The translations under genes and the position numbers were made by a program. Below, in pieces: positions 4,205 through 55,874 of a stretch of 64,000 nt of DNA. Below the pieces are notes generated by a model. That model was not told where the DNA came from, made no database searches, and worked only from the letters and a program-made list of their open reading frames with translations. This DNA is from Cristatella mucedo (Eukaryota; Bryozoa; Phylactolaemata; Cristatellidae), in assembly GCA_009760855.2 (NCBI GenBank), contig WPIO01000005.1, positions 2,341,001 through 2,405,000 on the forward strand. The letters are read 5' to 3'. Numbering within the stretch: the stretch's first letter is position 1; every line of letters starts with the position of its first letter.

Positions 4205-5085
4205 TACAATAGCAGCAGTACGGTTGTGAGCAGAATCCAGAATCCAGAATCCGGTATCCCAGGAATTCACACCGCAGTCGGTGAGGATCGGCAAGCATCA
4301 CTTTAGCACACAAGCAAGCATGTCGACCAAGCAGCAGTGGCAGCGAGGCGCAGCGAGTCTTGCCTTTTTTGCAGTTGTCCAACGGCGTCGACGGGTACCG
4401 GGCAGCTTTGTTTCGTTCACGGTGATGCAGAGCGACGACACGCCGACAACTCGAGTTTCGCAGTGGATGTGAAGTGCCTGTGAATGCAAGCGAGCCGAGC
4501 TGACGTCCGAAGGGGGAGGCTCGGAGAGCAATAAAAACGCTGTCTCGGCAGTGCAGCCTTCGATCAATGCAGCTGGTTATATAATACATCAATCTGGCCT
4601 TCACAATCAGGCAGATCAAAGAAAGACAGCTTAGAGAGCTCGATTGGCTGGGACAATACCCGGCTGCACACAATGCTGAGCGGCAGAGGCCGACAATGGC
4701 ACGCTCTGTGGTGGCAAGCAGCAGCTTAAAGATGCCCAGTGGGCTGTTCAGCAGAGCAGCAGGAGGTAAATCCATTATCGCTAGCTGTCGGTCGTCAGCA
4801 GCTGGGCTGCTGCTGTGGTGGCTTCATTGTTGGCTGCTCGACAAAGGTCGCGAGGCAATGGTGCACGGCTACCTGAGAGGTCTTTCCTAGTGGCTCACAG
4901 AACAGTGCCTGCTCTCAAGCCCAACAAAAGGCCGACAATCAGGCCAGCAGGCTAACGTGTCAGCCTTTACGTGGCAGAGATAATAGAGCTGCCTATGGGC
5001 TTTACCACGCACTAGCCTAGTCTGCTTATGGTTTGGCTATCGATGATCGCAGCAGGCACCGACGCCAGACAACCACGGACTAGGT

Positions 5086-5275
5086 CGGTGGTTCTCAACC
5101 TGTGGGTCGCGACCCCTTTGGGGGTCGAACGACCCTTTTCACGCGGTGGCCTAAGACCATCGGAAAACGCATTTCCACATTTTGCAAACAATAATTCTAT
5201 GGTTGGGGGGGGGGTCGCAACAACATGAGGAACTGTATTAAAGGGTCGCGGCATTAGGAAGATTAAGAGCCGCTG
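5086..5275. mobile_element. SPIN/URR1-like hAT miniature element, copy 1
   Basis: 190 bp with terminal inverted repeats: left CGGTGGTTCTCAACC, right ending AAGAGCCGCTG. It is flanked by imperfect 8-bp target duplications gactaggt / tactagat (6 of 8). Internal blocks GGGTCGCGACCCCTTTGG, GTCGAACGACCC and AGGGTCGCGGCATTAGGAAG match from memory the non-autonomous SPIN/URR1 family (hAT-Charlie group) of rodents, bats and other tetrapods. It has no coding capacity. The middle is deleted relative to copy 2. Confidence 0.8.
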
Positions 5276-5280
5276 TACTA

Positions 5281-5480
5281 GATGCCTGATGGTGGCAGCA
5301 GCACCAGCCGCAGCAGCAGCAGCACCAGCCACAGCAGCAGCAGCAGCAGCCCAATAGTAGCAGCTGCAGTAGCAGTAGCAACTACAGCAGCAGCAGCAAC
5401 CGAAGCAGTAGCCAACCCAGCAGCAGCTGGTGCATGAGCAGCAGCAGAATCACCAACAGCAACAGCTGCCGCAGCAGCAT
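5281..5480. repeat. GCA/CAG trinucleotide-rich stretch
   Basis: Irregular GCA/CAG/CCA triplets for about 200 bp starting next to the SPIN-like element. Each frame has stops within 25 codons, so it is not a protein repeat. Confidence 0.85.
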
Positions 5481-5565: not shown

Positions 5566-5566
5566 A

Positions 5567-27781: not shown

Positions 27782-28337
27782 ACCTCAACAGCTTGCACAG
27801 CAGTAGTGTCAAACAAGTTACGACAGCAACCGGCTCCACTGTGGCTGTAAACGACACAGGAACAATGACCACCTCGGTCCACATCATTTCACGAGGCTAA
27901 ATTATCTTACTCCAGCACATTATCAGCAGCCTGTTCTGAGCTGCAGTGTAAAATCGTAAACTCTTTTTCCAAGCCACACATTGTGTTTCTGACTTCAACA
28001 TATGGGGTTTTCAGCCTAGCTCTTGCACTTATTGCCCTGACATTTTCTAGGTTAAGTGCAGTCGGTTCAAATCTGCTGTCGTAATTAGCGAATTTAAGTT
28101 GCTGCCTCGTAGCAGGCACAGAAATTTCTCTCCGCAGGCGGCTCGTTATCGATGGCTCTTAATTCAGCTACAGCCTCTCGCCTCAGATGCATCGAGGGTG
28201 CATCCAAACTGTTCAGACTAATGCTGCTGATGTGCCAGTGCTCTGCTTCATGGACGCATACATAGTTCTATTGTAACTATTGTTACACTTAATGAGCATT
28301 ATGCACAATTTAATTTAGACAGCCGATATAATTTTAG

Positions 28338-28448
28338 GTGGAAAGGCAGCATATATAAAGTCCTCTGGAAAGACTTTATTGTCTTCGCGTCATTGTATTT
28401 TGCCGTGAGCCTTACATACAGACTTGTATTAACAGATTCCCAACGCCG
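28338..28448 (+). CDS. best: Bestrophin exon 2: first transmembrane segment
   Basis: The acceptor is attttag and the donor is CG/gtaggt. The exon starts with the third base of a split codon and ends in phase 2. It reads [20 protein letters not shown], then a hydrophobic stretch ending [11 protein letters not shown], which matches the family's WKGSIYKLLYREF...YRLLLTEEQRR region. This is the most upstream coding piece I could find. The preceding exon must end in phase 2. Confidence 0.9.
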
Positions 28449-31400
28449 GTAGGTGTGAGTTGCTAAAACATGTTACTCTGCATCTTGCATCATATATGAA
28501 GTCGCACATTCAGAAGATCGGCGGTAAGACATGCTATGGTGATTGCTTTTCTATAAAATAAGTTAGCGCTCGGTGATCTGGCAGTACGCATTGCATTTTT
28601 TTGCAGTGAGGTGATTTTAATTTGCTAGCAGCATTTTCTGCGAACTTAGCTAGCACTCACGTTTTACTCCTCAAAGGAACCCAGTCATGTGACTGTCAAG
28701 GCCCTAAATTGTGGCTAAATGCGGGCAAACCTGAAGCCATGATTAGTCTAAGGTAGTCTTAACCACTAATCGGCGTAAGGTGGTCACATTTAAGGACCAA
28801 GGTTGTGAGCTATAGCCTTGAGGCGCGTCTTTAAATGAATATATCTCCAAGTTCTCTCAGGGCGCTAACAAAATTAAGCCTTTCTTTTAAACCGATATAA
28901 TATTATAATGAAACATCACTGTAAGCGTACTCACACCTCACTGCGTGCATTAAAGCCAATCAAACCGACCAGTTTTGCAGGGCTTAATGCACACACTTCT
29001 CGGATGCATATAAGGTAGGCTTTTCGAAGATTTGTGTACATGATGGTTTTGTATATTTTCCATCCATCGCCGAACAAAACCGATCTTACAAATGAAAATT
29101 TATGTAAAGCGCATTATTCGTACACTCTACCAACTTAGCTTGCTCTAGAAGTTATTTTTTAACATTATTTGCTTGAGTTCAGAGAGCATCTGAAATGGGA
29201 GCCAGGTTCTGCATGTCACTTGACCAGATTATGTATCCACGGGAAGCCTCGGCTACCCCAACGATTGCCCCTCTAGTCCCCCCAAGTGGCTGAAGTTGAG
29301 GGTTTGTACGTCTACTACTTGCTCTCCCCCGGTACTTTCCATCCTCTAGTCTCTGATTCTAACAAGGCACGTTTGTATCAAAAGTCATACAAGAAATTGG
29401 CATGATTTAAAAAGATATAGCTAATTACTTGGCAGTTTTTGATCCTACTTCTATAACATGATATCATTTGTTAAAGCTCAATGTAGACCATGCCAGCGAT
29501 CACAGCTAGTCAGCCGAAGATTCTGTACCATCCCCTCTTTAGTTTTAATTATCAAATAATCTTAGCCTAGCCATAAATAATCTTTTTAATGTTTCACTGG
29601 ATAAAGTAGTTGTTCCGAAGTCTTTCAAATCGGCCATCATTCGACAGGTATTAAAACATTATGACGAATTCTGAGGTCCTAACATACTATAGTAAAGTCT
29701 CACTTCTTCCATAGCTGTCGAAGGTTCTTGAAAATGTTGTCGCTAAGAGGCTTGTAGAACATGTTGACAAGAATGAATTATCAGACAATTTTGGTCGTTA
29801 TCAATGCAAAATAACTCAACCGAAACTGCTCACCCACCCCTGTGTGAACGACGACATTATGAGAAGCGAAAATGATTGCAAGGTCACTTCCAAGATCCAG
29901 CTGGACGTAACGCATAGGTTGAATACTATTGACCATAATGTTCTACTCGGACTATTAAGAACAATGATCAGATCTCTCAGATCTATCTCACAGATCTAGT
30001 TTCCCACCAGGCGAAGCATAGTACCACTCGCTTCTCGGAATCCAACAGTCTATCAATACATCGTACAAACCTCAAATCCTTTGGAGACCGTGCATTTAGT
30101 TCATATGCTCCCAAAGCCTGGAACTCCCTCCCGACTTGGGTCAGAACATCCCCTGACCTGACCACATTTAAAAGGAACTTAAAAACACACCTATTCAGGA
30201 CAGCGTTTAGTGGGTCCCAGTGATTCGTCCTTCATGTGCTTATGCGTGCTGATACTGTGCATGCTGCAACTAACCACATTTGCATGCTGACCCCTGTGCA
30301 TGTTACCCCTAACCATGTTATTCATGTGGTTTGTCAAGCATGATGTTACTCACCATTCAATTGCATTTCCCTTTGCAGCAAATGTAAAGCGCCTAGAAAG
30401 AGATTGAGTTCTCTGAGGGCGCTTTATCAAGTGCATTATTATTATAATTATTATCAGTATGGAGTACGATGCTCTGGCATGGCTCGATTCATACTTTTAA
30501 GATCACGTGGAAGTCCGTGTCGTGTGGTGGCAATGTCTCGTCCAAAACACCAATCATCTGTGAAGCTCAGAAATGGTTTGTTCTTCAATCTTTGTTGCCC
30601 CAATTTAAACCGAGCCTTTAGGAGAAGTGATACGAGCCAATTACATCGGCTGTAGTTTCGATACTGGCTATAGAAAGCTGCACTTTTAGTTTAACTCATG
30701 AAAAATCAGCTGCAGTGACGGACCGAATGGGTACCTTGCCGACATTCAAGCCCAGATGCCCACCACATTTCCTAAGCTAAACGAGGATAAAACCGAATTC
30801 CTGCTTATAGAAAACCCTAAGCGTATGGCTGAACTAGGTGGCTTTGTTCTTGTAACTGGTGCTTCGGTAGTGCAACGGTCATTACGTGCTCCGAGTTTAG
30901 ATGCCCCTTATGATTAACGCTCTACGTTAAGGGCTTCATTGTGAAAACTGCGTCCTGAGCTATCCAAAAAGATTGATCTCTGTCAAAGATTCGGGACAGG
31001 CTTCTGTTGGTCTCAAGACTACTAAATGCAAATACTTTTTATAAACCTCATCTTTTTGTCGTGAGTGCCCACCATTGATAGCTGTCCAAGTTCTATTTAA
31101 TTTTGAGGTTTCGCTTTCGGGCTCAAGAGAATTAAGAGCTTTCACATGAAGTCTTTTGGGAGCCTTGCCTTCTCAAGAAGGTTTTCCGCAAAGGCTGATG
31201 CGAAAGCTCAACTTTTGGTGCGTGCTAACTTATGCTGCACTTTCTCAACTTGAAATCGCTAGCGTACTGACTGCAGCGCTGCTGGCCGCACAGTATTCTC
31301 TTTCACGATATTTGTTTACTGATATGCGAGGAAGTAGTTAATTTGCGGTCAAGAATTTGCCTGCTATCCTGGGTCAATTTTCAGGGAGTTTGAGAAGCTG

Positions 31401-32665
31401 GCAATTTATTGCGATCGACACACGGCCGACATCCCTGTTGCATTCGTCCTCGGATTTTATGTCACAATGGTGGTGAACAGATGGTGGGCGCAGGTCAACG
31501 AGGTGTGTCAGACGTTATGTTAATAGGCGGTTGCACATACAAGTAACGCTTCCTTTGGCACGGCTTCTTTACTCGGAGCTCGTGCAAGCGTTTAACGTGC
31601 TCCTCGTGTTATGCCTATAGCTCCAATCTGCAAGTTGTGCAGTTTTTGCTGCCGATGCGATCCGATTTCACAAGCCTTAAGTAGCGAGTGGCCCCCGTCG
31701 CGTTTCTTCTCTAAAAATGCAATTCAGTTGTATGAATTTCTGTCTAGTCAACAAAGTCAAAAAAGCAGGACAGGCTAAATGAGTTTGTGGCTGAGCATTT
31801 GTCTGCAGCATTTCGCCGAGCATTAGCTTCAAGATCACTACAAGATGGAAGACTGAGTGGCTAATCCTTCTCGGGTAGTAAACCACAGGCTGCACCTGAC
31901 GCAACCAGGGGAACATCGGAGAGCGAAGGGGAGTCGGGAGGAAGGTAAAGAAAAAGTGAGCAGCGCAGAAGGGGCCGCACAGGACGGCTGAACAAAGAAG
32001 AACCAGGGTTTGCAGCAGGACGGGAGAAGGCATAACCTTTCTGCAGGAACAGGATGAAAGTGATGCCCACAACCTAAGTCCCGCATAGCGACGGCTCGGC
32101 CTCAAACAGCATTCAAGTGAAAGCTTATGATGCGGATAAGTTATTAACCGGAGAAGAAATGAGGGCCATATGGAACTCGAGGTCTTACTAGTCAGTGTAA
32201 TAGCTGGGAATAGAGAGATCAAGCCTTACGAATGCCACGGTTATTCAAAAATTAGCTGCGTATTTTGGCCGCAGCTGCAAGCAAAAGTGCAAATGACGTA
32301 TCGTGAGGTCGAATACAAACTGAGTCATGTTTGTATAATGATTTCATTTTCTCAAAGGACTGTTACTAGCATTCTTATGGTAATTAAATTACTTGCCACG
32401 TGGCGTGATGGCATTTCGTGATGCCAAGATTTCTCGCGCTGTCAAGACGCCGAGATTTGCCGTGGCGACAGTCTTTTTCGCGGGAATTGATCGCGTAGCT
32501 GCTTTGGGTGGATTGGGGAGGGGTTGATTCAGCACGAAGTAACGATAAAAGCAACTATAGGTTCGTGGTCGGTCGCTGAAAGTGCACATTCCTTAAAATT
32601 GTGCTGATGAAAAGATTAGCCGAGAATAGCCAAGTATGAAAGGATTTATAGTAATATTGAAAGTA

Positions 32666-32701
<36 letters not shown>

Positions 32702-35700
32702 TACATAAAATATAACTACAAATATAAATATAAATACATATATAAATGTAAATATAAATAGAAGAAGTATGAAACAGACACAGCAATAACTGGCTGGCAG
32801 AAAGCTAATGCCAGATGCAAAGTGGAAGTACAAACAAGCGTGCTCATGAGATCAAGCTCTGTGCAAACGAGTTCGCAAGGTAGAACCGGAAGAACAACGA
32901 CGAGCGTGCGTGGCCTTGCATGCAGCCTTTAGTATCGTCAGGGAACCCCGAAAGCGGCAGTGCAGAGTGACTGCTAGTGAGGCTGCCATCACTCGCAGCT
33001 TGTACAACTGGATCAGGAAGGAATCCCGTGTAAACTGCCACGTTAGTAGGACGTGCAAAAGAAGCTTGAGAGGGTGACTATTTGAATTGAGCCGCAAGGA
33101 AATGATACTACAGTCTGAGAAGGAGATTAAGGATCTAAGTATACTATCTTAGCAGGAAAAAAGAGTGAGCTTGAACTTATTGTGATCTATATAAAAAAGC
33201 CATTAGGCTATTGCATCTGGTGATGAATATGGCTGTGAGGCTAGTTAACTAATCGGAGAGGTTTGATCATTCGTCTCCTTTGCTGAAGAAGCTCCGATGG
33301 CTTCCGGTTGATTGACCGAAACGGAGTAAAGTTTATACGCTGATCCACATGGCCCACCACGACATGGATCCTTCATACGTAGCTGAACTGATCCACCAGT
33401 TTCAGCCCCCTCTCGCCCTCAGGTCGTCTATGCATAATTAATTAGCTGGTCCATTTCCCCCTTAAAGATCGATGGCGACAGAAAAGTTTGCTCTTCAGAT
33501 CCTAGGCTATGGAACTCAATGCCGTAATTCTTACGCAACATCTAATCTCCTGCAGCAGACTGTTGCACACCCTTTCGAGCCATCCTGAGCCGCTAACTCC
33601 ATGCCACTCACTATCTCAACTGCTCTCCTGACTCAGCTATACGTCTCACTTTCTCTTTGTTGCATGAGATGAAGTCGGTTGGCTACAGAATGCGTACCGA
33701 AAGCCGCTTAGGCTGTGAGTGCGAAATTGAAAACTCTCATCCGTAACACGCACACAGTCTTTGTGACATTGGTGGAGTTATAGACTGAGATGCATGGATC
33801 TCCGACCAAGCGAAGCCAGATACAAGACAACAAGTTTGAGGGCACATTGTTGAAGTTCTCTTTGAGGACAGCATGCGTTAAGGAGGTTGCACACAACTAA
33901 TTTTCTCTCGTTTTTAAAGCAGAAATTTGGTAGTGAATGACTCGACATTAAAATCAAGTGATGAGTGGATATTTAAGAGCAGCCATCTTGTCCGCTGCAA
34001 GAACTTGCTCCCCAGGAGTGGAGCTGTCTAGAGCTGCAGTAGCATCTGCAAGCGGCATGGCAGCTCTCTTTGAAATTACTAGGGGGAAGTGAGCTTCATT
34101 AGTCCAGCCTTCAATTCGCTATGGCGTGAACCAGCTGCTCTATCGTGGATCTGGGCAGCAAGATAAACTGTAAATACAGGATTCAAGCACAAACCACCAA
34201 CTTAAAAAATAAGCCCCCTATCCGGGATGACTCAACAATTTGCAGCAGAACCTGGAAGGAGCACCTCAGCGCCAAAAATCCAAAATTTTATGCTAGATTT
34301 TTTCGTTACTAATTTTGGAATCCATAAGTAATACGTCAGACACAGAAATGAAATAGCCCAAATTTTTAGTAATGTAAGGTAGCTGAAAGTAGGCAGATTT
34401 GATTGTAGAGCAGATATGGGCGTCTAATGAAAGGTCACTTTGGAACATGACACCTAGACTTTGTGCAGGTTCAACAGGAGATATGCTGGCAGAGCCGATT
34501 TTGATCGTCTGCCTTTCCGATTTCTGAATCACACTTGGTTTGCCCATAACTAATAAGTTGGTTTTTATCATCATTCAATTTAAGAAAGTTTGCTACCATC
34601 CATGTGCAGATGTCATCAATACATGCAGCAAGGAAGCTGAGAGAATTCAAAGTGCTAAAGGGATGGGAGGGATCAAAGCAAAGGTACAACTGAGTGTCAT
34701 CTGCGTAGAAGTGAAAGCCTCAATTATGCTTAGCAACCACATCGGTAACATCGGTAAAAGGGAGAGTAGAGACTATGAAAAGAACATGACCAAGCGTAGA
34801 GCCCCAAGGATGCCCCAGACTTCAGAGGTTATTCGGATAATCTTTGTCTATTCGCATAAATACTCTGGAATTTCTCACTGAAGTAAGACACGAACCATTG
34901 CAGAGCAGTGCCAGTGATTCCCAGGCGAGATGAGAGGCGCTCGAGCAGGACTTGGTGATCGATGGCATCAAAAGCCGCCGATAGATAGAGCAAAATATGC
35001 AGAGATACTCTAATTAAGTAGAGATACTCTACTTAAGTCTGCATTCCTAACTAGGTGTAAACTCATGACAGCAGATATGGTTTCACATGAGGTTTTTAAG
35101 GATCCAAATCCTTATTACAGTGAACACTAAGCTTCAGGCAGCTAAGTAGTACTCAAGTTACCCAGTGCAATTGTAAGCTCATTTAGCTGATACTCAACGC
35201 TTTCAGGCAGTTTGACAATTCAGGTGACTCTTTAGGGCTTTTCGTATTTGCAATGGTATGCATCAATGATCTCTTGGCTAGCTGAAATTTAAAGAAGAAA
35301 CTAAAATTTCCTCTGCACCTCACAGCCTGGGCTCTGTCAACGTGAACTTTCCTCTCTGAGCTCAAATGTGCCGGCCTTTTTGTGCGTCACGTAAAATATT
35401 CTGCTCTCTTATCTTCCCCAGTCACTATAAATGCAATGCAGCTCAGCCACACGGCACGCATTGGAGATAAGCAATAGTCTCACCGAATGTCTAAATGCTG
35501 ACGACTTTCTTACGTTTCATATCTAAGTACGTACCTGGAACGGCCAACCTCGCTATTCTTGTGTCCGCGTTCCTGCACGGGAGTGATGACAGAGGCAGGT
35601 TATTGAGACGTACGATAATGCGCTACGTGACGCTTGGCTGGATACTGGCCATGAGGAGTATCAGCACGATGACTAAGAAGAGATTTCCTACTTTGGATCA

Positions 35701-38700
35701 CGTGGTTGAGCTAGGTAGCAGAAGCAGCGCTGCCACGTAAAGCATTTGGTGAATTCTGATCAGATCGCACTCCAATAGGACGCATTCCAATTAAAAAGGC
35801 CACCTCAAGTGGGCCCGCGCTTGTAAATTCATACTTGAACTGTGCATCTGTACTTGAATAAAGTTTGACTATCCACTACTTCGACTTGAATCTGTGCTCT
35901 AGGAACAGTTTTAATTTCAATCACTTATCAAAAATCGCATGAGTTCCTTGAAGTAAATCTGAAGTCATGGTGGCTATCTGTACTTTAAAGAACTCTTTTT
36001 GGTTACCAAAGGAGCCATCTATGGAGTTATAAGATAATTCACCAAGGAACCTCGCCATGTAGCTCCTAGTACAGAACTAAAACCAACGTACAGCTCGCAG
36101 AAGTTGTAACAGTACTTCAGTTTAGGTTGCGCTGAGGTAGAACAATTGCAAGTGACAGTAGCATGACATTGCACAGTGCGAACCCCTTTTCTCCGCTTAC
36201 TTGCGCATTTACAGTGAATATGCAGGACACATTCGGTGTATACAAACCATACGCTACCTGCATGCTGTTCAAAATAAAACATTTAATGAAATCTCTGCAT
36301 ACTTTTGCAAGCATGAAACCAACTGACAGCCGCAATGCTGAAGATTAGCAATGAACGAAATAGCAAACTTAAACTGTGAAAACCCAAAAATTCTTTTAGT
36401 AAAATTAAAATACATATTACAATCACGGTGTGATACTATAGCTAGCTCACTTAATGGCTACCGGCTTTTAAAGGAATATATAATACAAATATAATTCATT
36501 TATACAGCGCCCTAAGAAAACTTAATCTCTATTCAGGCGCTTCACATGTGCCTCGGGGCTCGAGCCCACGACCTCAGTCAGACCTTGGTCGGGGCGAGCA
36601 CCTTAACCGCTAGAGCAAAGTTGGGTAATCATAAAAAAGTGCTACTATAACTACTCTATAGAAACTCTTTTGCGGAAACACCCTTTAAAATTGAGACATG
36701 AAAACATTAATATCTGGCTCTAAAAGAACTAAATATATTTAAAGAAATTTAATAACTACAATAGCTTTTAGCAATAATGATACACAGTTTGTATCGCACC
36801 CTCAGTGAAATTAATTTCTTTGTAATAATAATAATAAAAAACTTGATAAAGAACCCTCAGCTAACTCAATCTCTTTCTAGGCGTTTTACATTTGATGCAA
36901 AGGAGGCATGATTGCATGGTTAGTAGTACCATGCTCAATAAACAATAAGAATAACATGGTTAAGGGTGACATGCACAGAGTCAGCATGCAAGTGTGATTA
37001 GTGGCAGCGTGCACAGTGTCAACACGCGGTAGCCAATAAAGGACGAATCACAGGGACTCACTAAATGCTGTGATTGGTACTTTTAAAAATGCTGTACAGG
37101 AAGCATGACCGCATGCTCAGTGGTAATATGCAGAGTGACAGCGTGCATATTATGGTTGGTATATGCGCACTTTCAGTAGGCATAAGTATACAAAGGACAA
37201 GTCGAATGGGATCTGTAGATGTTGTGAGGAAAAGGTACATTTTTAATTTCTTTTTAAATGTCAAGTCGGGAGGTGGGGCGATGTGACTTCAGTCGGGAGT
37301 CAGCCCTAGGCTTTGTGAGTTGACAAACTGAAACGGTTTCGAAAGGATCTGAGATTGGTTCGAGGCATAGCTCAACAATTTGAGTAAGAAGATTTCGGTT
37401 ACTTATATTATGCTCAAAACAAGCTTGTCAATTGTCTGATAAATATGCATAATTTCAACACTTAAAAGCCCATAAAGAACAATTAATTTAGATCAAAGGT
37501 TCTCAAACCTGTGGATGACAACCCCTTTGGAGGTCGAACGACCCTTTCACAGGGGTCGCCTACGACCATCGGAAAACACGCATTTCCGATGGTCTTAGGT
37601 TCCTTGTGATTATTATGAAGAACCAATTATCATAATCCGTGGCTGTTTGCGCCCTTGCTATTTAATAAGCTGAGCCGTGAGATTCACATTACGATTCTTG
37701 TAGCAGAATTACAGTTATAAAGTAGCAACAAAAATAATTTTATGGTTGGGGTCACCACAACATTAGGAACTGGATTACAAGTTCGGGGCATCAGGAAGGT
37801 TGAGAACTACTGACTTAGATGAGCAAAGACAGAGGTGAACTGGCTTGCTTTTAGCTTTTTATAAATGTCGACAAGTGAGGGATTGCCGTGATGTCGGCGG
37901 CTAGTGAGTTGCAGGATTTGGGAGCATGACAACTAAAGGCAAGCTATCCAACGAATGTTAATATGAGGTTCATTAAAGAAAGCTACATACGACTGAAGTG
38001 GGGGCAGCGAGTAGTAATAAGGGACGCCTGATTAGACTAACTGTTAGGATAATAGTGCATCTCCTGCAGGACCTGCAAAGAGCAAGTTGCACAAGTCTAA
38101 ACGGAATGTCACAAATGCACGGAAAAGCCTGGCTTTGGTGCCCCTATCTAAGCAACCACGATTTACTGTAATGCTAAACTTAACTGCCTAGTAGATGAGC
38201 GCCACGCAGGCTTTGGGCAGCCTTAGTCTATCACTCGCGATTCGCAAGGAAGCGGCGGTTTGTGAATGAATTGAGCTTTACAACAGAATCTATATGTGCT
38301 CGGGCTCGTGTACCTCTACAGCACCAGAGCTCGAGTCATCGACGCTGCATAGAGTCAAGATAGCAAGGAAAGAGATCGGTTCTATGCCGCAGGGATGTCC
38401 ATTCTCCGGAGTCGAAACCTAACCCCAGGGGGTAGGGTCCGACGGCTGCACCTCTCCTGCATCGTATCTCCACTCATTGCGAAGGTATGGGGTTTGTCGA
38501 ATAGTGCAGTTTTCACCGTAGCCGACTACTGACCGGTCCACCCACTATTTACCTGCACCTCGAGGGAGCGCCATCAGAGCGCCATCAGGAGAGGCGACTC
38601 CTACTCGTGGCCCTAAGTGTGCATGCTCTACAAACCGAGATTCTCCAGCATCCACAAAGGCATAAATCTCGATTGCTCGCAAGCTGACATTCATTTGCAG

Positions 38701-41700
38701 CAGTGCTATTACCAAACAGGGTATTAAATAGGCACCGAAGAACTGGCACTGAAACTTACCCTTGGCAACCTAATAATGATAACAATACTGAATAAAATAT
38801 AATAATGTAATATAATATAATATCCTACTTAGTCGCCCTTGGCGATTTCAAGGTTTTGTCACTCGCTTTTAGGTCCCTTCTTTCTTTGGCTCCAGCCTAC
38901 ATATCACATCTACTTCCCCACCAGGCCACGCATAGTACCACAAGCTTTTCGGAATCAAAGTGTTTACCTATACCGGGTACGAACCTCAAATCCTTTGGAT
39001 TCTGTGCCTTTAGTTCGTACGCTCCCAAAATCTGGAACTCACTACCGACTGGCGTCGCGACATCCCTTGACTTGACCACCTTAAAAAAGGCATCCATTTA
39101 TCGCAGCTTTTATTAGGTCCATGTGATTCGTCTTTATTGTGCTTATGCGTGCTGACACTGTGCAAGCTGCCGCTAACTACATTTGCATGCTGACCCTGTG
39201 CATGTCACCTCTATGTTAAATTGTTGTTCGTTGAGCATGCCACCGCTAACCATTCGCTCATGCTTTCTTTGCAGAAAATGTTAAGTGCCTAGAAAAAGAT
39301 TGAGTTCTCCAAAAGGGATATATAGAATGTATTATTTACATTATAATCCGGTCGTTTAGTGAAAGGTAAAAATTTGACCAGGGCAGACACATTTGTGTGC
39401 AGACATCGTGAGAAATAGCCAATTTTCCCATTTTGAGGGTTACGCCTTCTAGCTTCCGAGCGACACAAACCCTTCCCTTAAATACTGAATTGCTTATATG
39501 AGGATTACATTGGAAACACTTGCTTCCGTTCAAAGTACAAATTACAGCCGCATGGGAAAGTTTGTGAGAGAGTTTAAAATGCTGTTAGGCAGGGAGGTAT
39601 CAAAATACTAGCACGATAGTTTGTCACACAGATAAAAATGAAGGCTCAGATATGTGATTTGCGATTACAGTGGAAATAAGAATGGTACAGATATAATAAA
39701 GAAGAGGACACAGAAGATATTCCTATTCTTTAAAATCACTGTGTAACCATCGTTGGTTAAGCTATAGTCTTTGAAATCTTCTAATGAGATAAGACCTAAA
39801 TATTGTATCGAATTGCCCACGATCTCCAGTTGAGATGCTAGGCCCTAAAGAATGACTGGATGATCACTAGCATCAAAACCGACAGAAAGATTGAAAGGAA
39901 TTAGCGGTGAAACTCCACCTAGGTCAGTGTTTCTGAGGAAGACGTCATGTAGTATATGCAACGGTGTTGACTCTGTAGAGAGATTTCCTTTACAATAGGA
40001 CTTTAACCTTAATTGCTAGGCTTAATATTTGATTCACAAGTTTAGCTCGTCTGCTAATATCGTTCCAGTATCTTTGATATGAACTTTAGTAGTAAGTCTG
40101 AGCGAAAGATGTTGACGCTCTGCGGTTCTAGTGTCGACATGTTTACGAATAGCATGACAATAGCCAATTCGATGGGAGCAGTTACATGCTCTTAGGCTGA
40201 GGGCATACTTTTTGTGTTAGCTATGCAGAGTAGTGTCAAATCGAGGCATGAAAAATGGAGATTGTCAGGGTTCGGGTCTGGAGGCCTGTTTGTCTTAATA
40301 GACTTGAAGATGAATTTGGAGATGAGTTCAGTGGTGGTCGACTTGAAAGTAGATGACACACATGGTGATCGGCTTGAAAGTAAACGTTAAAGTCGCATAC
40401 AGCGGAGGTTAAAGATTCCAGGGAGGATTCTACCTTGGGTACGGACACTCCAATCTTATCTATCTTTCTGAAAAGTAAGCCAAACGACCTGCCTGATCCC
40501 CGAAAGGATTGCTAGGATAAGGTGTTGACCCGCGAGCGATTAATGATATGCTTGATGGTCGTCACCAATGAGTTAAGATTCTGTATCTGCGATACCGCTA
40601 CCTTTCTATAGCAGATATGAGATGGGATAGAATAAATTGGTATATACCTGGCTCCCAAGGAGCTGCTAATGATCGCAACGACATTTAAGACAAGCAAATA
40701 ACTTGTCTGTTCCTCACAGTCATTGTTCCGTCCACATGAGTCGTCCCTTGTGAGCTTTTTAATGCTGAGATTGTACACGTTGATACTAGTCACCTGCCAT
40801 GCTTTATATCCAGCATATTTCAAGTGCTGAGAAAAAGATTTAGTTCTTTCTCTTAGAAAACTATAAAATTAGTGGTTAACAAAAAATAAAGACCCATAGG
40901 TGTCGGCACGAATCCTTCTGGTGGTACAATTTTTAAACCCTTAATTGACACTAACCATCACCGAGTAGTCTGAAATGCGGCACAGAGGGAATTTTGAGAA
41001 CGCCAGTAACCTGAAGGGAAATCCAAAATTGCTGCCGCCTCGCCACAGGCCCGGCACTGTTCATTCACAACTGTAAATAAGATCACCATAATTAGCTTTC
41101 TTTTAACAGAGTGGCTCTTTTATTAGCTTCCATGAGCTTGGCGTTTATACATATATGAAGTTAATATATCAGATTATGAAGCCTGATTATTTCTTATTTC
41201 TTCACAAGTAAAACGTCTATCGCAAGATATAGGTCAAAACTGTCAAAGCAGACTGAAAGACCGCCGATGACATATGAAACTGAGATAGATTATGGGATTA
41301 CTTTAAGCTAGGCCCGGTATTCAATGCGTTCAGGCTTGAAGTTACAAAGCGGCTCCTGCAGTAATTAGTGTCTTGGCTCAAGAGTAGAGTGACTTCATTG
41401 TGAGATAGGTAGCGGAAAATGGAAATCACGACGTTTACAAAACATTTTGACTAGTATGTTGGTTTTTATTGTCATTCGGTTTGGGAATGTTTGGTTAAGT
41501 CAAAGTGCGAATGTCAGAAAATCATTTTGGAAGAGAGTAAAGAGAATTTGACGCCCTGGAAAGTAGGGAGGGATAAAAGGACAGGGGTACAGCTGTGTGC
41601 CATCTGCATAGAAATTAAAGCCAACTTCGGGTTGGGCGATTATATTGGCAAGAGGGAGATTGTAATTTGTGAGATAAGCTGGACAAAATACAGATCCTCA

Positions 41701-44700
41701 GGGTATCGTGAGGGAAATTTAAGAGGCTCATCGGATTCCCGTTCACCTAACTGCTCTTCAGCCTCCATCTGAGATAGAACCTAAACCGTTGCAGTGCAGT
41801 GCCAGTAAAGCCCCAGCTAAGTGACCGATACTCGTGGTGGAATTGGTGATAAATTAAATCAAACGCTGCCAAAATATCAAACAAACATCAGGGCTACTCT
41901 TACCTAAGCCTGAATTTCAGAGAAAATCCTTACACACTCACAGATTGCTGACTCGGTATAGTGATTAGCTCTAAAATTTTGCCAGAACTTACTTTCTAGG
42001 TTTGGAGTTTTGATAATAGAGTTTATGAGATCTGAAACACCTCGAAGAACCACATCTAAAAGAACTTCGCTGGATCATTTTACGCATAGTTTTGACGCTG
42101 GTCAGAGCTTGAATTTATTTTCCAAATGTTCTGCTGCAGTCGACAAACACGAGCTAACCTAGTTCGAACAAAATGTGTCGCTCCCCTTGGTAATTTTATT
42201 TGCTGCATTAACTTCCATGAAAATATTTGATGCTGGATTGCGTAGATAGTACACCTATAAAATAATTAGTAACCCCTTTGTAACTTGCTTCCTCGAATGG
42301 ACCATCATCTACAGAAACTCAGGAGGCGCGCTATGAATAAAGAATAGTGCTTTTACGTATCCTCTATGGATTATGGTCAGTAGCTGCATTTGGCTGCCGA
42401 CGAGATTCCTGAACAAAATTACGAATTAAAATTGGTTACCTTATAGAAAAAAGTTCCCATTATATTTTTTCTTATATAATAAGTGACATTTTCTAATTAT
42501 TCCTCAAAAGTATTAAAATGCCGTTCCTTCCCACGATCTTTGATTTGTGAGCAGGGTAGCGGTAAATATGAAGTTTCTGTATTTGGCCAAAATATGTGGT
42601 AGTAATAGCGAACTCTAAAAGGCTGGTGCTACGTATACATTCATAGTGTTGCATATAATCATTATTTGTACAAAATCGCACTAAAAATAATATAGTAATC
42701 AGAATATATTTGTCATATAAGCTATGAGCGGTTTAGTATTTGATATGTTTACTGCGGATCACGAGGTGAAGTCATTGAGGTAAAGTATTCATAACTTGTT
42801 CCATGAATTTCTTGGTGATTAGAATATATTAGTCATTCATAATTTCATGTAATATACATAGAATAAATATTGGAGTCCTAAACCCTCGAGCTTAATGTAG
42901 CTCCAGGTTCCTAAATTGCCCCCTAAATGCATTTTCCTGAGGTGGCATTAAAAGGCTGCAAGCATCCAGTGGACGTATTTTGCTGCATCTGCAGCCAATT
43001 CGTAGAGGTTGGTGAAAAAATAACCGAAATAACCACGTCTTTAGCGCATATACATTTATCTGGCTTGGTGCACTTGGTGCACTAAAAGATGATTTCAGCT
43101 GCAGCATCAAACTCGGGTGGCTGCATTGAGGTATGACCATATCGGCTGGGATGTGATCAGAACCTTCAAAATGTTAACATTCCTAATGGATCTCCAACGG
43201 ACGACCACTGCCTTGACTTGCCGCGGCAGAATAAGTTAAATAAATAAATACAAGCTGATTTAACAGCCTTTTTTGGCTAGTGACAGAAGAGCCTTGACGG
43301 CTATCACCACCGCTTGCAGCGGCGATAAAGGATCGCCCACCACAGGATTCGAACCCACGACCTCGGGGCCGAGATCGTGAAAAGCAACCGCCTTACCTAG
43401 TGAACCATTTTTCTCTGTGGGAGGCAGCAACGTCACAAGGGAGCTGTTGATACACTACAGAAAATGCCACTGCTGCATATCAACTTATACCTGCTGAAAA
43501 GACTTTTTACTCTTCTAGGAGTCTTCTAGCAGGCTTCGAGTACTTTCAAAACTACTTCAATATTGACCGAAGCAAAGGTGAAAGCGGAGTCTTTTTGGAG
43601 CCTATCCTTGAGTTCAAGGATTTTAAAAGGATGCTCGCTACTAAAGTAAGAAGATAGCCACTTGGAGCAGCTTCATCACAGTGGTTCGAGGCGGCTTCCA
43701 AGGAAGCCGCCTTGAACGATGACGAAGATGAGGGAAAACTCAGTCGTTCTAGTTGAGATCACTGCGATGACTAATGAACAATGGCTGCGATGCGATCCTT
43801 GTTCTTGATGCCAAGTGTGATGAATTCAAGGAGAAGATAATTGCTTCTTCGAAGGAGCAAGACGAGCAAGACTTCCATCAGGATTTAGAATTAGGCTTTG
43901 AATGCCGATACCAAGGACCGTATAACGAAATATGGCGGTAGACGCAGTCTGCGGGCTTGCTCATGAAATCGATTTGCAATATAATATCGTACATCTTTAA
44001 AACTGTTCACTTCTAAATATTGGGGTTGTTCCTATACAATTTATTTCAGTAAGGTGCTCCGTAAAAGTAATGTCTATTTTTAATATGAATACATGTGATA
44101 TGTAACATTCGGCACAGTGAATTCATCCACTTTTACTGGAAGTGAATACAAGAAAAATCGCACAGCCCTGGTCGTTAAAGGAAAATGTGTGAGGAATAAT
44201 ATCCATTTTTTGTACCTTTGAGGCAGAATCTCTTTCAAAATTACAAAAACTAACCTGAAAAAAAGCTGCTTTGCAAGGTGTTATTAAACATGTTGATCAA
44301 ATGTGGCGAGGATAGCACACTCTACTGCCCTGAAACTAGTTGGCATCAACTGACTGAGTGAGGTGACTTGAAGCGGAGGCATTTTAGGTCATTTCATTGC
44401 AGGCGCGATGACTACAAACGAGAGGGACATATACGAGAATGTGAAGACCGCAAGCAATAAATACTTCTTGCCCTACGTATGGGCTTCCAGTTTGCTAAAG
44501 CGGGCTAGGAAAGAAGAGAGAATCACAAGTGACCACGCATTTGTCACACTGGTGCAGGTGAGGATGACTTCTCTAGCAGTGTATTTTATCTGCTGCGTAT
44601 TACCTACCTACAAGTATATTTTTAGACCGAAAGGACGCATTACGCCATTGTGTGGTATGGCGACAGTATTTTTTGTTTAGAGTCTGCTAATTTTATCTTT

Positions 44701-47700
44701 TACCCGAATTCAAAAATCCAATGCCGTCATTAGTTTAATGTATAGGATCTTAGAATATGCGTTATTTGTATGCATTACTATGTATAAACAAATGTTTACA
44801 GGATAAAGCATGCGCCATCTGCGTATTTTCCCGACCTTATAGAATTAGCAGAGAGACCTCTGATATCTTGCCCGCATCCAGAAAATCGAGACTGCTACTG
44901 CTAGTTAGACTACAAACAGAATTTCTACAATGAATATATGCGTAATGCACGCGTGTGCGCAATTCTGCGCAGATGCAATTATATGTACAAGGACGCGGCT
45001 GCAGACCACGTATAGGGGTCGGCCGCCGCGAACCTCGAATTGGACTGCATTTTCTATCTAATTGCAAACCTACCGCGGTCTTTTGTGTCGCGGCTGCGTT
45101 GCGACTGCCTCAGAGCTTGTCCTCTGCGCCGAAAGTGGTTTTAGCAATTGCTGGCCACCAAAATTTATTGGTTGCCAATCTGTGATGCCAGCCCATTACA
45201 GATCGGCTTCGCCTGGCTCGCGGCAAGCAAAGTACTACCGTGTATTGTGTACGCGTGCGCCCACTTCTCTGACTGCCGTCGGCCTGGTCTGATCTCTCCT
45301 TTCTCATCCTTCCGATGGCGAATAAATAAATCGTCAAGAGCAGAGGTTGACAACCTACGGCCTTTAGGAGAGATATGACCTATACTCCAGTCCGGCCTAA
45401 CGCCCCTTAGCTATTTATTGTAGGGTCCAGCTTCCTAATTGAAATTGAACCCATTTGATCCCTAATTGTCGCTGTTTTGCTTCATTACTGCTGGTTGCAG
45501 CTCAAGCTACGGCCAATGTTTCGTTTTTAGAACTGCTGCCACGCGCTTGCATGAAGCAAAGGCGCCTAACCAGGGAGGAATGATAAATGTCTACTCTATT
45601 GATATGATAATTGCCGTGTGCGTCTGTGCGTCTGCTGCGACTGTTTGTTCGATCGTCTGGCCACGCTGAATAGTTGTCGGCCAGTAGAGTGGGGTTGTCT
45701 TCTCCTGATCCAGTCAGATGCCTTTTTGACCTCCTAAAATGGCCGAAAGTAGTCCGAAAAGTTTGCTGATCCCTGGTCTAGAGTATTAGCACGTGTCGCA
45801 CGAGACAACGAATGCTAAGGCCAACAAAGCCGACAATAAATCGCGAGGTAGCGCATTTTCCGTGGCCAACAGCATCGGATCTAATGGTTGCAGCTTGGAA
45901 CAGAATGCAATTTTGAGCATGCACATTGATTCACCCAGAAAGCCTGGATTCAGCTCAATGAAATTATTGAAAATGTAATGACTGGGGCTTTAAAATTTTG
46001 TGTTTTGCGTCAAAGGAAATCAGTCTTTTAAATTCAAACGGTAGAGCTGATAATAGGTGATTACAGGAATGTTACATTCCTTTTATTAACGCATTGTAGC
46101 GGCTTCTGAATGAGGTCGTAAGGCTAAAAAAATCAGCTAATGGTGCTGGTTCTTGCTGACTGCGACAAAAATCGTTGAAGCATAAACGCTTATGCGTTGC
46201 TAGCTACATCTACAAGGTATCAATGAAAAACCCATAACTTAATTAAATAATAATAATAACAATAGGAAGAAGAATTTTGAACAGCGATGCACGATAACTA
46301 AATATATTTCTAGGTACTTGGCTTTAGAACTGAATACCTTTTTAGTAAAAGTCATGCATGTCGACTGGTTAGTGATTACATGCACTGTGTCAGTACGCAT
46401 CATCGCGCAAAGGGCTATACATATGAAGCAAGCAAATGATGGGTGAAAAATGCATTCTAGCATCTTTTAGATTGCCGTTAGGTCAGGCGATATCGTTGCG
46501 TAAGCCAATAGTTCCAGGCTAAGGGAGAATAAGAACTACAGGCATGGTCTCCGTACGATTTGAGGCTGGACACAGAGCACAGGTACATAAAATGAGTCGC
46601 AAGTGAAGCGGGTACAAAGATGGCTATGATTGATATATTAGGAAGTAGTTAGGACAGGTGTTCCGGAGAAAGAGAATGAAGAGTTCTAACATCGAGTGGC
46701 TAAAACCTTGAAGTCGATACGTTATTTGATGGGGAGCCCGTGCAGGTTGGTGAGAAGAAATGTAATGTGACCATTGCGATAGCGGCAACGAAAGACAAGC
46801 CTCGGTGGAGTGGTTCTCACTACTAAGAGCGCGTAATTGCGTAGGCCCAAAAGCCTCAATCAGTGAGCAGCAGAAGCATGTCTCTCGCGATGATAGACAA
46901 CGTCCAATAGAGCTCCTCAGGAGGATAGACTCAGTGGCAACACTTTAGAAAAGAAGTGAAAAAAGTGAGCTACTGCGAATTGGAACAGGACGTCACACTT
47001 TACCTTTCCAGTCCGCCGATTCTGCAACCCGGGCAGGGTCGTAGCCGCATCTAGCTGGTTGACATGAACGTGCACGATGATCGCAAAGAATTACACTCAC
47101 AAAGTTCTAATGTATTTGGAATAATCGACAGAGAAGAACGCAGGTAGATATGATATTATATTATATTAAGCTGAATGAGGAGCTCCGCTGAGGAAATATA
47201 AAATGAAGACGAGTTGTGAGCAATTAGAACTCTCAACTATGCTGAGCCATTCTACCAATCATCGAAAAGCAGCGGCGTTTAAGGCATGCCAATTCCAGTG
47301 CATTGCAAATCGTTGCAGAAACGAGGCTCTCCACCGGTCACGTGAGAGAGCCCACAACAGTCAAATTACTCGTAGTGTGCAGGCCATAAAAAGCATGATC
47401 GCAGTGTTATGACCGGCTATGTGCGCGAGGACTTTGTTGCTCACGTATTCAGTTGAGGCCAAGGTACAAGATACCCGCATGTTACAAGCAGCCAATTCCA
47501 TCGTCTCGTGTGAAATCATAAGCTATGGGTCACCAAGCCATATATTCGGTTTCCTCGTTACAATACACGGAGCTTCAACTGTGATACGCTTCTGTACCAC
47601 GCTGGTCCTATTGTCGTAACTGACATCTTCTAGACTAACTAATACACAAATAATTTGAAACCTGGTGGAATTATTAGAAAACTTATGTTACTGCTTTGCC

Positions 47701-50700
47701 GTTATCTCAACATTACTCTCCAAAGACTGCTCATTAACGCGGGTTCTTAAATTTATTTACTGCCTTCTTATTGCATCGGACAGCGACGCACCTCTGTGTG
47801 CAGGGTGTACAGACTTTCAAGATCGACACGTCTCATTGCATCTGTATGCCTTTGAGCAGCCAGCTCTGCCTCGACAACTCTTTGAATATAGCGTCAATTT
47901 AGGGTTCGCATTCATTCAATGCAATATATAGTTCCTGAAATGCTAGACATTTGATCTGAAAAGCTCATCAATTCGCATAATTCCATCAACGGATTATTCC
48001 TCTTAAGAATTCCGAATTTTGACACAGTCATAAGCTACTTAAGCTTTGAAGCATTCAATACTGAATTTAGTACGTGCCATACTCAAACCAATATCGAAAG
48101 CCATGCTTCAGGGAAAAGGCTCACATGTAATTGCGAGTGGCGAGACTAGCACTGGGCAACTTCTAAGAGATCTCTCTCAATACATTATCCCGCACTTCCG
48201 ACACCAAACTTTACATGCCCACGCGCGACTTTGACTCAGTAAGTTAAAGCACATCGGATTTGTACAGGTTTGTACAGGAGTGCATCCTTTCAAAGAGCGC
48301 TCGCTAGTTCGTCGTTCGGCTGCCGCTCTGTGACTGTCGTCGACGTACGACCGGAGATATGATCGACGACTCTCGCGCTTTCGTCAGTTCACCGTCTCCG
48401 CAAGCGTGCCAGATAGGCGATCCCGCTGCGCCGGATCCGATCTCCCAAGGCGAGGCAGTCAGGCCTCAGCGGATCTGCAGAACAGAAGCGTCAGCAGCGT
48501 CGCCTCTACTAGCTGCTCGCACACTTGTTTGTCACCAAAGGTGCCATGCATTTTACTGGTGATTTAAATCCTGATATTTATTCTCTAATCGTCTCGCTTC
48601 ACGATGAATGCGAGAGGAGAAGCGAAGGACGGAAACAGTAAACCAAAGCCGCTTAAGCTTTCGGCCTGGCACCGGGCACCGTTTGCTGGTCAGGTCACGA
48701 GTAAATTCTTAACCCACCTGGCAATGGCGGTCCGAAAAAAGTATGGCACAAAAAGCATAAAGAATCTATAAGTCTGCATTATTTCAGAAGATAACAATGC
48801 AATTTCGTGGCTCTCCGCCCGCAACTCCGCAGATCCACGAAGACCGAGTGGGTGCTGCCAAAGAGAGTTTTCTGTAGCGCACTTAAAGGCTACGCGGCTG
48901 TCGTTGCGCTTCTACCACAGCCAGCAGACTTCACCTCACGCAACAAATAGAAAGTGAGAAGCATAGCTGGGTCAGTAGAGCAATCGAGGAAGTGAGAGTA
49001 GCGAGGGAGTCGCAGCCTGGGCGGCTGGAAACGATGCGCCTCAGTCGGCAGCCGGAGAGTCGATGTCATTGTGAAGTAGGGACACTTACTGTGTTTGATT
49101 GATTCAAGTTGTCTTCTTTAATTAAAATGCACAGCAATTTATTGATCGCCGAGCTCGAATTTACTTGCAGGAAGTATGCAAATTCCGTGGCAGTCTTGCG
49201 ACACTATTCAACTACGACTGGATTAGCATTCCACTGATGTATACGCAGGTAAAGAAGAAAGTCGCTATTTTGTTTGCCTTTCATAGAGCCTTTTTCATGG
49301 TCAGTGACAAGCAGTTTTAGCGCTTAAAATATTTCTTACATTTTTGATGGTTTTTAGCCCTAAGTAAAGACGATTTTAAAAACATTATCGAAAGCAATTA
49401 AAGGCAAATTAAGTCATTGAATGATTTAAAGTACAATAAGCGTGGAAAAAGAGCTAGTTTCAACGTGCATCTGATATTAGTCGAAGGACTAAAAAGCCTC
49501 TAAATGACGGTCGTTCGTTTAAACTTGAATTCTGGAAGTGTAGTTCTTCTGCTCTACAAGTAGAATGCATAATTAGCTTATCTTGAAATATTGATGCCAT
49601 TTTAAATTAAGCATGGTAGTAGCAATGTTTTTTTTAGTGTAAGTTACTCAAAAACGTAAATGAAAAGGCTTTGTTTATATAGCGGGAGAGAAACCGTATC
49701 AGCATATTGCCACCCCCAGCATTCAGACGAAAATAAACGTTCGCTTTCTGCATGAATTGAAACCCATGAACTAGGGTTAGGGTTTTGGTCGTGAGTCGGG
49801 ATCACCTTACCTCAGGTCTAAGACAATTTGGGTCGGTGATTTATTGCCCACTGAGAGCTGACTTTCAATCGTCATGGTCATCTGCCGATATTTAAATCAG
49901 ACCTTCGAATCTACTGATCAATTTATTTTTTACTCAGTAGATGTTATAGCGGCTGCTCAGACTTAATATCATCCGTCATTTACTCCTACGCAGTTGGCAG
50001 GTTCTTTCTCGCAAGTTAAAGTTTGCTAAGGGACTGTTTGACAGGCTCACTTCTTGGCAAAGTCTTAAACAACTTCCCAACAGAAGTTAGCAGTTACTGC
50101 TAGGAAACCTTCTAATGGCCTCTCCTGAATTTTTAATTACTCGGCTATCGCTCTCAATTTTTTGATTCGTCGACATAAGATTTGGTTGATAAAGTTGATA
50201 ACTTATTCATCATTTACAATCCGATGTTTTGACTCAAATTCGCGTTGTGTGCAAAGGTGCAGAAGTGCTAAAAGTGGGATTTAAAATATAATAAAAATAG
50301 AATGAAAATGAACTACAAACACGCTTATAACGCAGACTTGGACCTAACCTTTTTGAAGGTCATCATCATATTCTCTTTTGCCATTATATATTCTGTCGAT
50401 GCTGAACTCTAATATAAATAATGCTATTCGACTTTATTCGCTTATTATGTTTCCATTAAGTGCAAATAAAAGCTTACGCACGCGAACACGAGTGTACTTC
50501 ATGACTAGGGTAGCGTGAAGCTGCGTGTCACCGTGTAACCTTTCTGGACCTCTTTGGATCAATTAACTGAGCGCAGCGTACAGTGAGGTTAGTCCTCAGC
50601 TAAGTTTCGCTCACCGAAAAACTCATGACCAGCAGTCATGCTCATTCGCCAATCCTAAATTGCAGATGATTACTCGAAAACTTTTGATTAGCGATACTTA

Positions 50701-53700: not shown

Positions 53701-55831
53701 TGTAAATGAGAGAACTGATAATATAAAGTGCGGCGTAGTGCGTACTACCTTAACCTTGCGATGGTTATCGCAAGCACCCGGGGGTGAGCGTGCATGCACC
53801 TCCCGAGTCCCACGGACGTCTTCCGGTCATTCGTATTTTAATTCAAATTTATTAGTGGGAACTTATGTTTTCTTTCGATGTCACGGTGCCGAAGGTGCTC
53901 TTGCATTATGACAGTGAAATTAAAGTTTCCAAAAGCTAGCCGATCAGCTCTAGCATGAATTGAAAGAGGAAAACACTAAAACACTCACCGCACCCAAACT
54001 ATAATTGTCGTATGTTATAATACCAAAATATTAATTAGCGCAGTTCTTGCAACGAGTACAATATCCCCTAGCCTCGAAAAATATGCCTCTTATCGTCAAG
54101 CAGGCGTTTAAAGACTGTACTTTCGAGGACAGCGAAGTTACTTCCATATTTTTGTGGAAGTGATCTATATCGTATTAGCACAGTGTTGTAGAGTGCAATC
54201 GTAATCTGCAGATGCAAGTTTAACCAGTTGATATATACGTACGTATATACCAGCTTAAGTCGCTGGAAAATTACGTAAGATTCTAGTGTCGTATTGAACT
54301 GAAGATCCGACTGTCCGTCAGGCAAGCTGGTAAGCCTTTTAAAGACTCGAGAGTTGGTTAAAGACTCGAACCGCCGACCTGGGCCCCGAGGTGCTCGCAC
54401 ATTACCTTCAGTATATTTATTATCGTGGCTCATTTACTCTGCGATATGCACGAAGTAAATTGAACTTCCTTTTTATAATATATATGATGTATAAATATAT
54501 AATTAATTTATACAGCACCCCAAGAGTCCCAGAGGTTTGAGCACGTGTCTCTTTTGCTAAAAGAGCTATGATGGATGCCGGTTAAGCAAAGGATACGGAG
54601 CAAAGTTCTTACGAAGGTACAAGGCTCGCCACGGCTTGGCTCCTTCGTACCTAGCTGAACTGCTGCACCAGTTTCAGCCTCTTCACGCCCTCAGGTCCTG
54701 TGTGGACAATAAATTAGCTGTTTTATTCCTTCGCTTAAAGATCCTTGGTGACAGAAACTTTAGCTCTACAGGTCCTAGACTGTTGAACTCGCTTCCACAG
54801 TTCTAATGCAACGACAACCACTCTCCTACTGCCGACTTTGGCTCATTCTTTACAGCGGTCTTGAGCTGCTACTTCCATGCTACTCACTACCTCAACTGCT
54901 CTCCTGACTCTGCTATGCTTCCCAATTTCTCTTTGTTGCGTGAGATGAAGTCTGTTGGCTACCGAATGCGTACCGAAAGCCGCTTAGGCTGTGAGTGGGC
55001 TATACAAAACTCTCCTGCGTAACACCCAAATGGTCTTTATGACTTTGTGGAGTTACGGACAGAGATACATTACATTAAAAGAAAACTTAATCTCTATTCA
55101 GGCGCTTCACGTATGCCTCGGGTCTCGAGCCCACGACCTCAGCCAGACCTTGGTCGGGGCGAGCTCCTTAACCGCTGGACTAAATCTCAATGGAAAATTT
55201 TTTAAACGCGTATATCGCTAATGTTTTGGCGTCTAAGGTGCCTTCCAAGACTTCTGATGCATTTTATGTGAATCGACGGCTGTTATTTTTATCCCGAAAT
55301 GCCATTGGTTGGTTTCCCCGCTTTAAATGCGCTATAGATTTCTTGACTTGTCTGGAACCATTTGTGGCCTATATCATTGCATGTGCATAACTGAATGTCT
55401 CAAATCTTGGCAGAACCTCATAAATTAATTCCCCACACAATTTTAGATGCATTTGTCAAGAGGGTTAGTTACATTGCCTGTACAAAAATTGTTACTTCGC
55501 GGTGTTCTGATGGTGCTGTCAAAAGCTAAGCTTCGTGGACCGAAACTATTTCGGGAATCCCTAAAAACCATCAAGCAAGTCATTTTATCTTAATTTTACA
55601 CCTAGTAAGCTAACCAAGATCTCAGAATGCAAGTTAAGCAAGGTTTAGTGCTTCCTATTTTTAAGACCACGATGTCATAGTATTTTGGACTTTACTTTCC
55701 TAAACCACTGTGACGCTTAAGATTTGTGTGAACTGATAGGGTCTGCAAATTCTTGCGCCAGATATGCATGCATATAAAATATACGTGCGCGAACATTCAC
55801 ATACACGTACAAACCCAAACGCACGCATACA

Positions 55832-55874
<43 letters not shown>

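What the first reader, a model, noticed from the sequence alone, without database searches (positions are those of the whole stretch)
5086..5275. SPIN/URR1-like hAT element in an invertebrate-looking genome
The terminal and internal blocks match, from memory, the SPIN/URR1 non-autonomous family known from mammals, lizards and frogs and reported in a triatomine bug and a pond snail as a case of horizontal transfer. Target-site duplications are seen. If the genome is not from one of the known hosts, it adds a new branch to that transfer.
Basis: partly seen in the sequence, partly recalled or inferred. Interest (0 to 1): 0.8.

Follow-up and report, generated by a model that had tools for sequence, protein, structure and literature searches.

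The report
SPIN-like jumping DNA in an invertebrate
Two short, worn copies of a cut-and-paste DNA transposon, closely resembling a family known for jumping between vertebrates and invertebrates, sit in an unnamed animal's DNA, one of them inside a gene that looks non-vertebrate; this may add a host to a known story, but the host could not be identified and the family match rests on recalled sequence.

Summary
Two copies of one short transposon lie at 5086-5275 (190 bp) and 37494-37812 (319 bp). They share both ends and inner blocks, far above other pieces of the window. Each has imperfect terminal inverted repeats (11 of 16) and flanking 8-mers matching at 6 of 8 and 7 of 8. All four 8-mers fit nnnTAnnn, the printed target site of Buster-type hAT transposons. 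Six-frame Pfam scans showed no transposase domain, so these look like MITEs moved by a transposase from elsewhere. A recalled URR1/SPIN sequence matches well beyond the ends, including 55 columns inside copy 2 (46 identical, 5 mismatched, 4 gapped), while a recalled MER5A control matches only 11-18 terminal bases. No reference SPIN sequence could be reached, so membership is likely, not formally tested. Copy 2 lies in an intron of a bestrophin gene that falls outside vertebrate BEST1/BEST2, which argues against vertebrate contamination. Host species, copy number and horizontal transfer remain unshown. SPIN or SPIN-like elements are already in print for the invertebrates Rhodnius and Biomphalaria.

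The parts
5078..5085 (.). left flanking 8-mer GACTAGGT (target-site duplication, copy 1)
   Evidence: 6 of 8 identical to the right flank; fits nnnTAnnn
5086..5275 (-). copy 1: 190-bp SPIN/URR1-like hAT MITE (strand given in the recalled URR1 orientation), lacking most of the middle of copy 2
   Evidence: shares both arms with copy 2; matches recalled URR1/SPIN ends
5276..5283 (.). right flanking 8-mer TACTAGAT (target-site duplication, copy 1)
37486..37493 (.). left flanking 8-mer ATTTAGAT (target-site duplication, copy 2)
   Evidence: 7 of 8 identical to the right flank; fits nnnTAnnn
37494..37812 (-). copy 2: 319-bp SPIN/URR1-like hAT MITE, in an intron of the bestrophin gene
   Evidence: lies between the exon at 35531-35731 and those at 44399-44506 and 49165-49251
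37559..37599 (.). inner inverted repeat of copy 2 (17-base arms, 94% complementary, 7 bases between)
37813..37820 (.). right flanking 8-mer ACTTAGAT (target-site duplication, copy 2)
28321..56991 (+). host bestrophin gene, the setting of copy 2: seven exon matches at E 1.3e-4 or better (28321-28446, 31389-31493, 35531-35731, 49165-49251, 51192-51362, 56153-56239, 56854-56991), one weak but collinear (44399-44506, E 0.041); a possible first exon at 15996-16061 (E 0.21)
   Evidence: tblastn with recalled human BEST1 (17 rows listed, these 9 kept, the other 8 have E 0.63-9.6); Pfam PF01062 best E 1.8e-17; joined exons hit PDB bestrophins at E 2.8e-128

Best explanation
These are two worn copies of a non-autonomous hAT transposon (a MITE) of the Buster branch, most likely of the SPIN/URR1 family, in a probably non-vertebrate animal genome. 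Mechanism: a Buster-type transposase encoded elsewhere in the genome (inferred; none found in the window) recognised the terminal inverted repeats and subterminal blocks, cut the element out and pasted it at a site with central TA, leaving 8-bp duplications (shown, as imperfect remnants). Short forms arose by internal deletion (inferred; shown is that copy 1 lacks most of the middle of copy 2). The copies then mutated separately (inferred from their divergence). That the family entered this lineage by horizontal transfer is inferred from what is known of SPIN and is not shown here.
For: Shared arms and inner blocks. Flanking 8-mers 6 of 8 and 7 of 8 identical, all four fitting nnnTAnnn (read), the Buster target consensus quoted in PMC3499496 and PMC3517528 (passages); PMC3499496 places SPIN in the Buster family. 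No transposase domain at E 0.01 or better in six-frame Pfam scans of the window, 30 stretches in three sets. Recalled URR1/SPIN left end: 74 of 81 ungapped bases in copy 1, 120 of 134 in copy 2; right end: 79 of 82 and 75 of 81 (local alignments that leave off the last four recalled bases); scores 114-182 against maxima of 22-28 in 300 shuffles each. A stretch of the left end that only copy 2 covers: 46 identical, 5 mismatched, 4 gapped, score 66 against at most 25 over 393 other pieces. A recalled MER5A control matches only 11-18 terminal bases. Copy 2 is in an intron of a bestrophin 57% (185 of 324) and 55% (177 of 324) identical to a PDB Bestrophin-2 and a PDB Bestrophin-1, which are 68% (222 of 327) identical to each other.
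Against: That no column differs from the recalled sequence in both copies at once (0 of 169) looks too good and may reflect this. Only two copies were seen and their duplications are imperfect. A stop-to-stop reading frame of 145 aa (5012-5449, - strand, no start asked) runs across copy 1; it drew no Pfam family in the six-frame scan, and I take it as chance. Patterns from the family gave 0 matches in viral contigs and genome contigs, and copy 2 (copy 1 was not sent) gave none in plasmids or phages; those collections are of viruses, bacteria and archaea, so this says little.
Confidence: 0.8

Rival explanations
1. A different, native hAT Buster or Charlie-type MITE family of this animal that shares SPIN-like ends by common descent, with no horizontal transfer.
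For: Buster elements are widespread (bat, mosquito, sea urchin, zebrafish, planarian; passage in PMC3517528), and CAGTGGTTCTCAA-type ends recur in many hAT families (recalled); the SPIN comparison uses recalled sequence.
Against: Likeness to recalled URR1/SPIN runs 139 bases of the left end in copy 2 (81 in copy 1) and 81-83 bases of the right end, and holds in an inner stretch; a recalled relative (MER5A) matches only 11-18 terminal bases.
Confidence: 0.17
2. Vertebrate DNA contaminating an invertebrate assembly, or a vertebrate genome misread as invertebrate.
For: Vertebrate BEST3 and BEST4, and jawless or other early chordates, were not compared.
Against: Copy 2 lies, in a window without N, inside an intron of a bestrophin outside vertebrate BEST1/BEST2; CpG observed/expected is 0.88, unlike the depletion usual in jawed vertebrates (recalled).
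Confidence: 0.06
3. Chance resemblance or a simple repeat rather than a mobile element.
For: Copy 1 sits beside a CAG-rich array and contains a run of C.
Against: Self-match E = 3e-19; score 110 against a maximum of 29 in 786 comparisons; target-site duplications.
Confidence: 0.01

Closest known systems
SPIN (SPACE INVADERS) non-autonomous elements, including rodent URR1 (the link of the two names is recalled)
   Same: Ends, subterminal blocks and an inner stretch match the recalled consensus at roughly 90-96% of ungapped bases by arm; Buster-type target site.
   Different: The middle of copy 2 was not matched to anything; copy 1 is a shorter form; compared with recalled sequence only; host unknown.
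SPIN-like hAT of Biomphalaria glabrata (about 1,000 copies; passage in PMC5440852)
   Same: A SPIN-like hAT in an invertebrate.
   Different: Window G+C of about 45% is above what I recall for pulmonate snails and for Rhodnius; one look for the Biomphalaria value found none.
TcBuster and other Buster-family hATs
   Same: 8-bp nnnTAnnn target duplications.
   Different: No sequence comparison made; no transposase seen here.
OposCharlie1 (OC1)
   Same: A transferred transposon family with hosts including a triatomine bug and planaria (table in PMC3621081).
   Different: OC1 sequence not available here; no comparison was made.

Membership tests
hAT superfamily | 8-bp target-site duplication | tested here: met
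   6 of 8 and 7 of 8 identical flanking 8-mers at the element ends; 8 bp stated for hAT in PMC11008031, PMC3517528 and PMC3942097 (passages)
hAT superfamily | short terminal inverted repeats | tested here: met
   11 of 16 in each copy, imperfect; range 5-27 bp quoted in PMC3517528
hAT superfamily | mobilised by a hAT transposase | not testable with these tools
   No transposase domain among six-frame Pfam hits of the window; genome search did not complete
Buster branch of hAT | target-site consensus nnnTAnnn | tested here: met
   All four flanking 8-mers (two insertions) fit (read); consensus
SPIN/URR1 | high nucleotide identity to the SPIN consensus over ends and interior | tested here: inconclusive
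   Strong match, but to recalled sequence only; no reference found in the collections searched or as oligomers in paper text
SPIN/URR1 | many copies across the host genome | not testable with these tools
   2 copies in the window; the genome search did not complete
Horizontally transferred transposon | patchy host distribution, and identity above that of vertically inherited genes | not testable with these tools
   Host not identified; no relatives' genomes available

The most novel reading that the evidence does not exclude
SPIN entered an animal lineage not yet known to carry it, perhaps a parasite or intermediate host that links snails, blood-feeders and vertebrates, and left an old deletion-derived MITE family there, including an insertion in a bestrophin intron.
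Probability: 0.4. Interest if true: 0.6.

Novelty: new member of a known kind. Interest (0 to 1): 0.42.

Why it matters
SPIN is a textbook case of transposons crossing phyla, and the routes are still argued over (recalled). Each further invertebrate host, above all one in contact with both snails and vertebrates, makes the route more testable. The element itself is an ordinary MITE; what would be new is the host, which could not be named here.

Tried and rejected
Contamination from a vertebrate was considered and disfavoured because copy 2 lies in an intron of a bestrophin outside vertebrate BEST1/BEST2. Naming the host failed. Six-frame Pfam scans at E 0.01 gave only bestrophin, reverse transcriptase and DUF3915; a scan of ten reading frames at E 0.1 added three weak hits below their curated cut-offs (Med24_N, BRI3BP, T6SS_VasE), which I took as chance. 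No Rfam match reached the gathering threshold, ARAGORN found no tRNA gene, and Rfam at a loose threshold on 37450-37850 gave two weak hits far below their gathering scores. A sea lamprey, tick, fluke or caenogastropod host was considered on G+C and CpG (recalled values) but could not be tested. Looking for SPIN or URR1 sequence in print by searching paper text for 12 oligomers found 0 papers. The two founding SPIN papers and two further DOIs were not held; statements about them are recalled or come from citing papers. Paper searches on SPIN, URR1, OC1 and Buster; most listings were off topic. For ten papers I saw passages only (PMC11614815, PMC5440852, PMC13155389, PMC11008031, PMC3499496, PMC3517528, PMC3942097, PMC3621081, PMC4054807, PMC5331948); none was read whole. 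Mended on checking: a reading that the bestrophin exon at 35531 has lost residues is dropped (see Noticed in passing).

Full report
What is there. The window holds two copies of one short transposon. Copy 1 is 5086-5275 (190 bp), flanked by GACTAGGT and TACTAGAT; copy 2 is 37494-37812 (319 bp), flanked by ATTTAGAT and ACTTAGAT. The two share both arms; copy 1 lacks most of the middle of copy 2. BLASTN of the window against itself finds one arm at E = 3e-19. nhmmer built from both, with a preliminary end of copy 2, lists four hits up to E = 10: copy 2, the two arms of copy 1, and a short inverted match inside copy 2. So there is no third copy that it could see.

More than chance. Copy 1 scores 110 against copy 2 and at most 29 in 786 comparisons with other 320-base pieces (both strands). 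With 30 bases removed from each end the scores are 83 and at most 29 in 484 comparisons (+ strand only). Flanking 8-mers match at 6 of 8 and 7 of 8; random window 8-mers do so in 0.48% and 0.05% of 200000 draws. When the edges are slid by up to 15 bases, 5 of 961 and 15 of 961 placements reach 6 of 8, so these duplications are good but not unique evidence on their own. Terminal inverted repeats agree at 11 of 16 in each copy.

What kind of element. Eight-base duplications and short inverted repeats are hAT features (passages). All four flanking 8-mers fit nnnTAnnn, quoted as the Buster target (passages in PMC3499496 and PMC3517528); PMC3499496 puts SPIN in the Buster family. Six-frame Pfam scans of the window at E 0.01 show no transposase domain, only bestrophin, reverse transcriptase and DUF3915. 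A 145-aa stop-to-stop frame runs across copy 1 without a Pfam match. So these are most likely MITEs moved by a transposase encoded elsewhere (inferred). Copy 2 contains a 17-base inner inverted repeat, and none of 100 shuffles folds as well as it does as single-stranded DNA (z = -4.8).

SPIN or not. No reference SPIN or URR1 sequence could be reached, so I used ends recalled from memory. Left end: 74 identical, 7 mismatched for copy 1; 120 and 14 for copy 2. Right end: 79 and 3; 75 and 6, leaving off the last four recalled bases. Scores are 114 to 182 against shuffle maxima of 22 to 28. All of this was typed after reading the window, and the right end in particular is not independent. The fairest part is a stretch of the left end that only copy 2 covers, where recall and window differ in places: 46 identical, 5 mismatched, 4 gapped, score 66 against at most 25 over 393 other pieces. 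A recalled MER5A control, which shares hAT termini, matches over only 11-18 terminal bases. In a three-way alignment of 169 ungapped columns, 135 agree in all, 16 differ in copy 1 only, 17 in copy 2 only, 1 differs three ways and 0 are shared differences from the recalled sequence. If the recall is right, the source element in this host was very close to SPIN and the copies diverged from it independently by about 10% each; but this result is partly circular and I give it little weight.

Host. The window has no N, G+C of about 45%, and CpG observed/expected 0.88. Bestrophin exons lie on the + strand from 28321 to 56991: seven at E 1.3e-4 or better and one collinear at E 0.041, out of 17 rows listed; several have splice-like edges, others are unresolved. 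The joined protein is 57% identical to a PDB Bestrophin-2 and 55% to a PDB Bestrophin-1, which are 68% identical to each other, so it branches outside those two. Two of the 13 PDB sequences matched were compared in this way; BEST3 and BEST4 were not compared. Copy 2 sits between the exon at 35531-35731 and the next ones at 44399 and 49165. This disfavours vertebrate contamination but does not name a phylum. I recall G+C of about 34-38% for Rhodnius, Lymnaea and Biomphalaria, which would argue against these hosts; one look for the Biomphalaria value in print found none and the others were not looked up.

Known background. Rhodnius carries SPIN, OC1, hAT1 and ET (passages in PMC11614815); Biomphalaria glabrata has a hAT of about 1,000 copies with significant identity to SPIN (passage in PMC5440852); OC1 occurs in planaria and a triatomine bug (table in PMC3621081); 385 SPIN elements occur in the painted turtle (passage in PMC4054807). 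So a SPIN-like element in an invertebrate is not new in kind.

Verdict. A real, worn, non-autonomous hAT element, most likely of the SPIN family, in a probably non-vertebrate animal genome. Interest depends on the host, which could not be identified: the genome search did not answer in 13 attempts.

Noticed in passing
15996-16061 and 28321-56991: Bestrophin gene on the + strand. The exon at 35531 reads VPGTANL where the printed PDB bestrophins read IPWPDRI or MPLPDAL: the motif is changed, and the join to the exon before it is not resolved, so a diverged or decayed paralogue, or a misread edge, is possible.
   Followed up: partly
18005-19192 (-), 52106-53574 (-), and pieces at 29983-30453, 34355-35003, 36823-37074, 38843-39347, 41450-42023, 61970-62207 and elsewhere: Many fragments of one LINE with a reverse transcriptase and an ATT-rich tail (L2-like by recall), the most often repeated sequence in the self-comparison.
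   Followed up: partly
5575-5740 and 43245-43409: An 89%-identical pair containing GGTTCGAATCC, which looks like the head of a tRNA-derived SINE.
   Followed up: no
36494-36619, 55079-55184, 58435-58561: A second short repeat family, 87-94% identical between copies, unclassified.
   Followed up: no
33257-33795, 54531-55070, 60149-60377, 48812-49071, 5481-5571: Another dispersed repeat family of up to about 540 bp, 74-89% identical between copies, unclassified.
   Followed up: no
5295-5479: CAG/GCA-rich imperfect trinucleotide array just beside copy 1.
   Followed up: no
3928-4205: Long GT dinucleotide array, 139 units, 86% matches.
   Followed up: no
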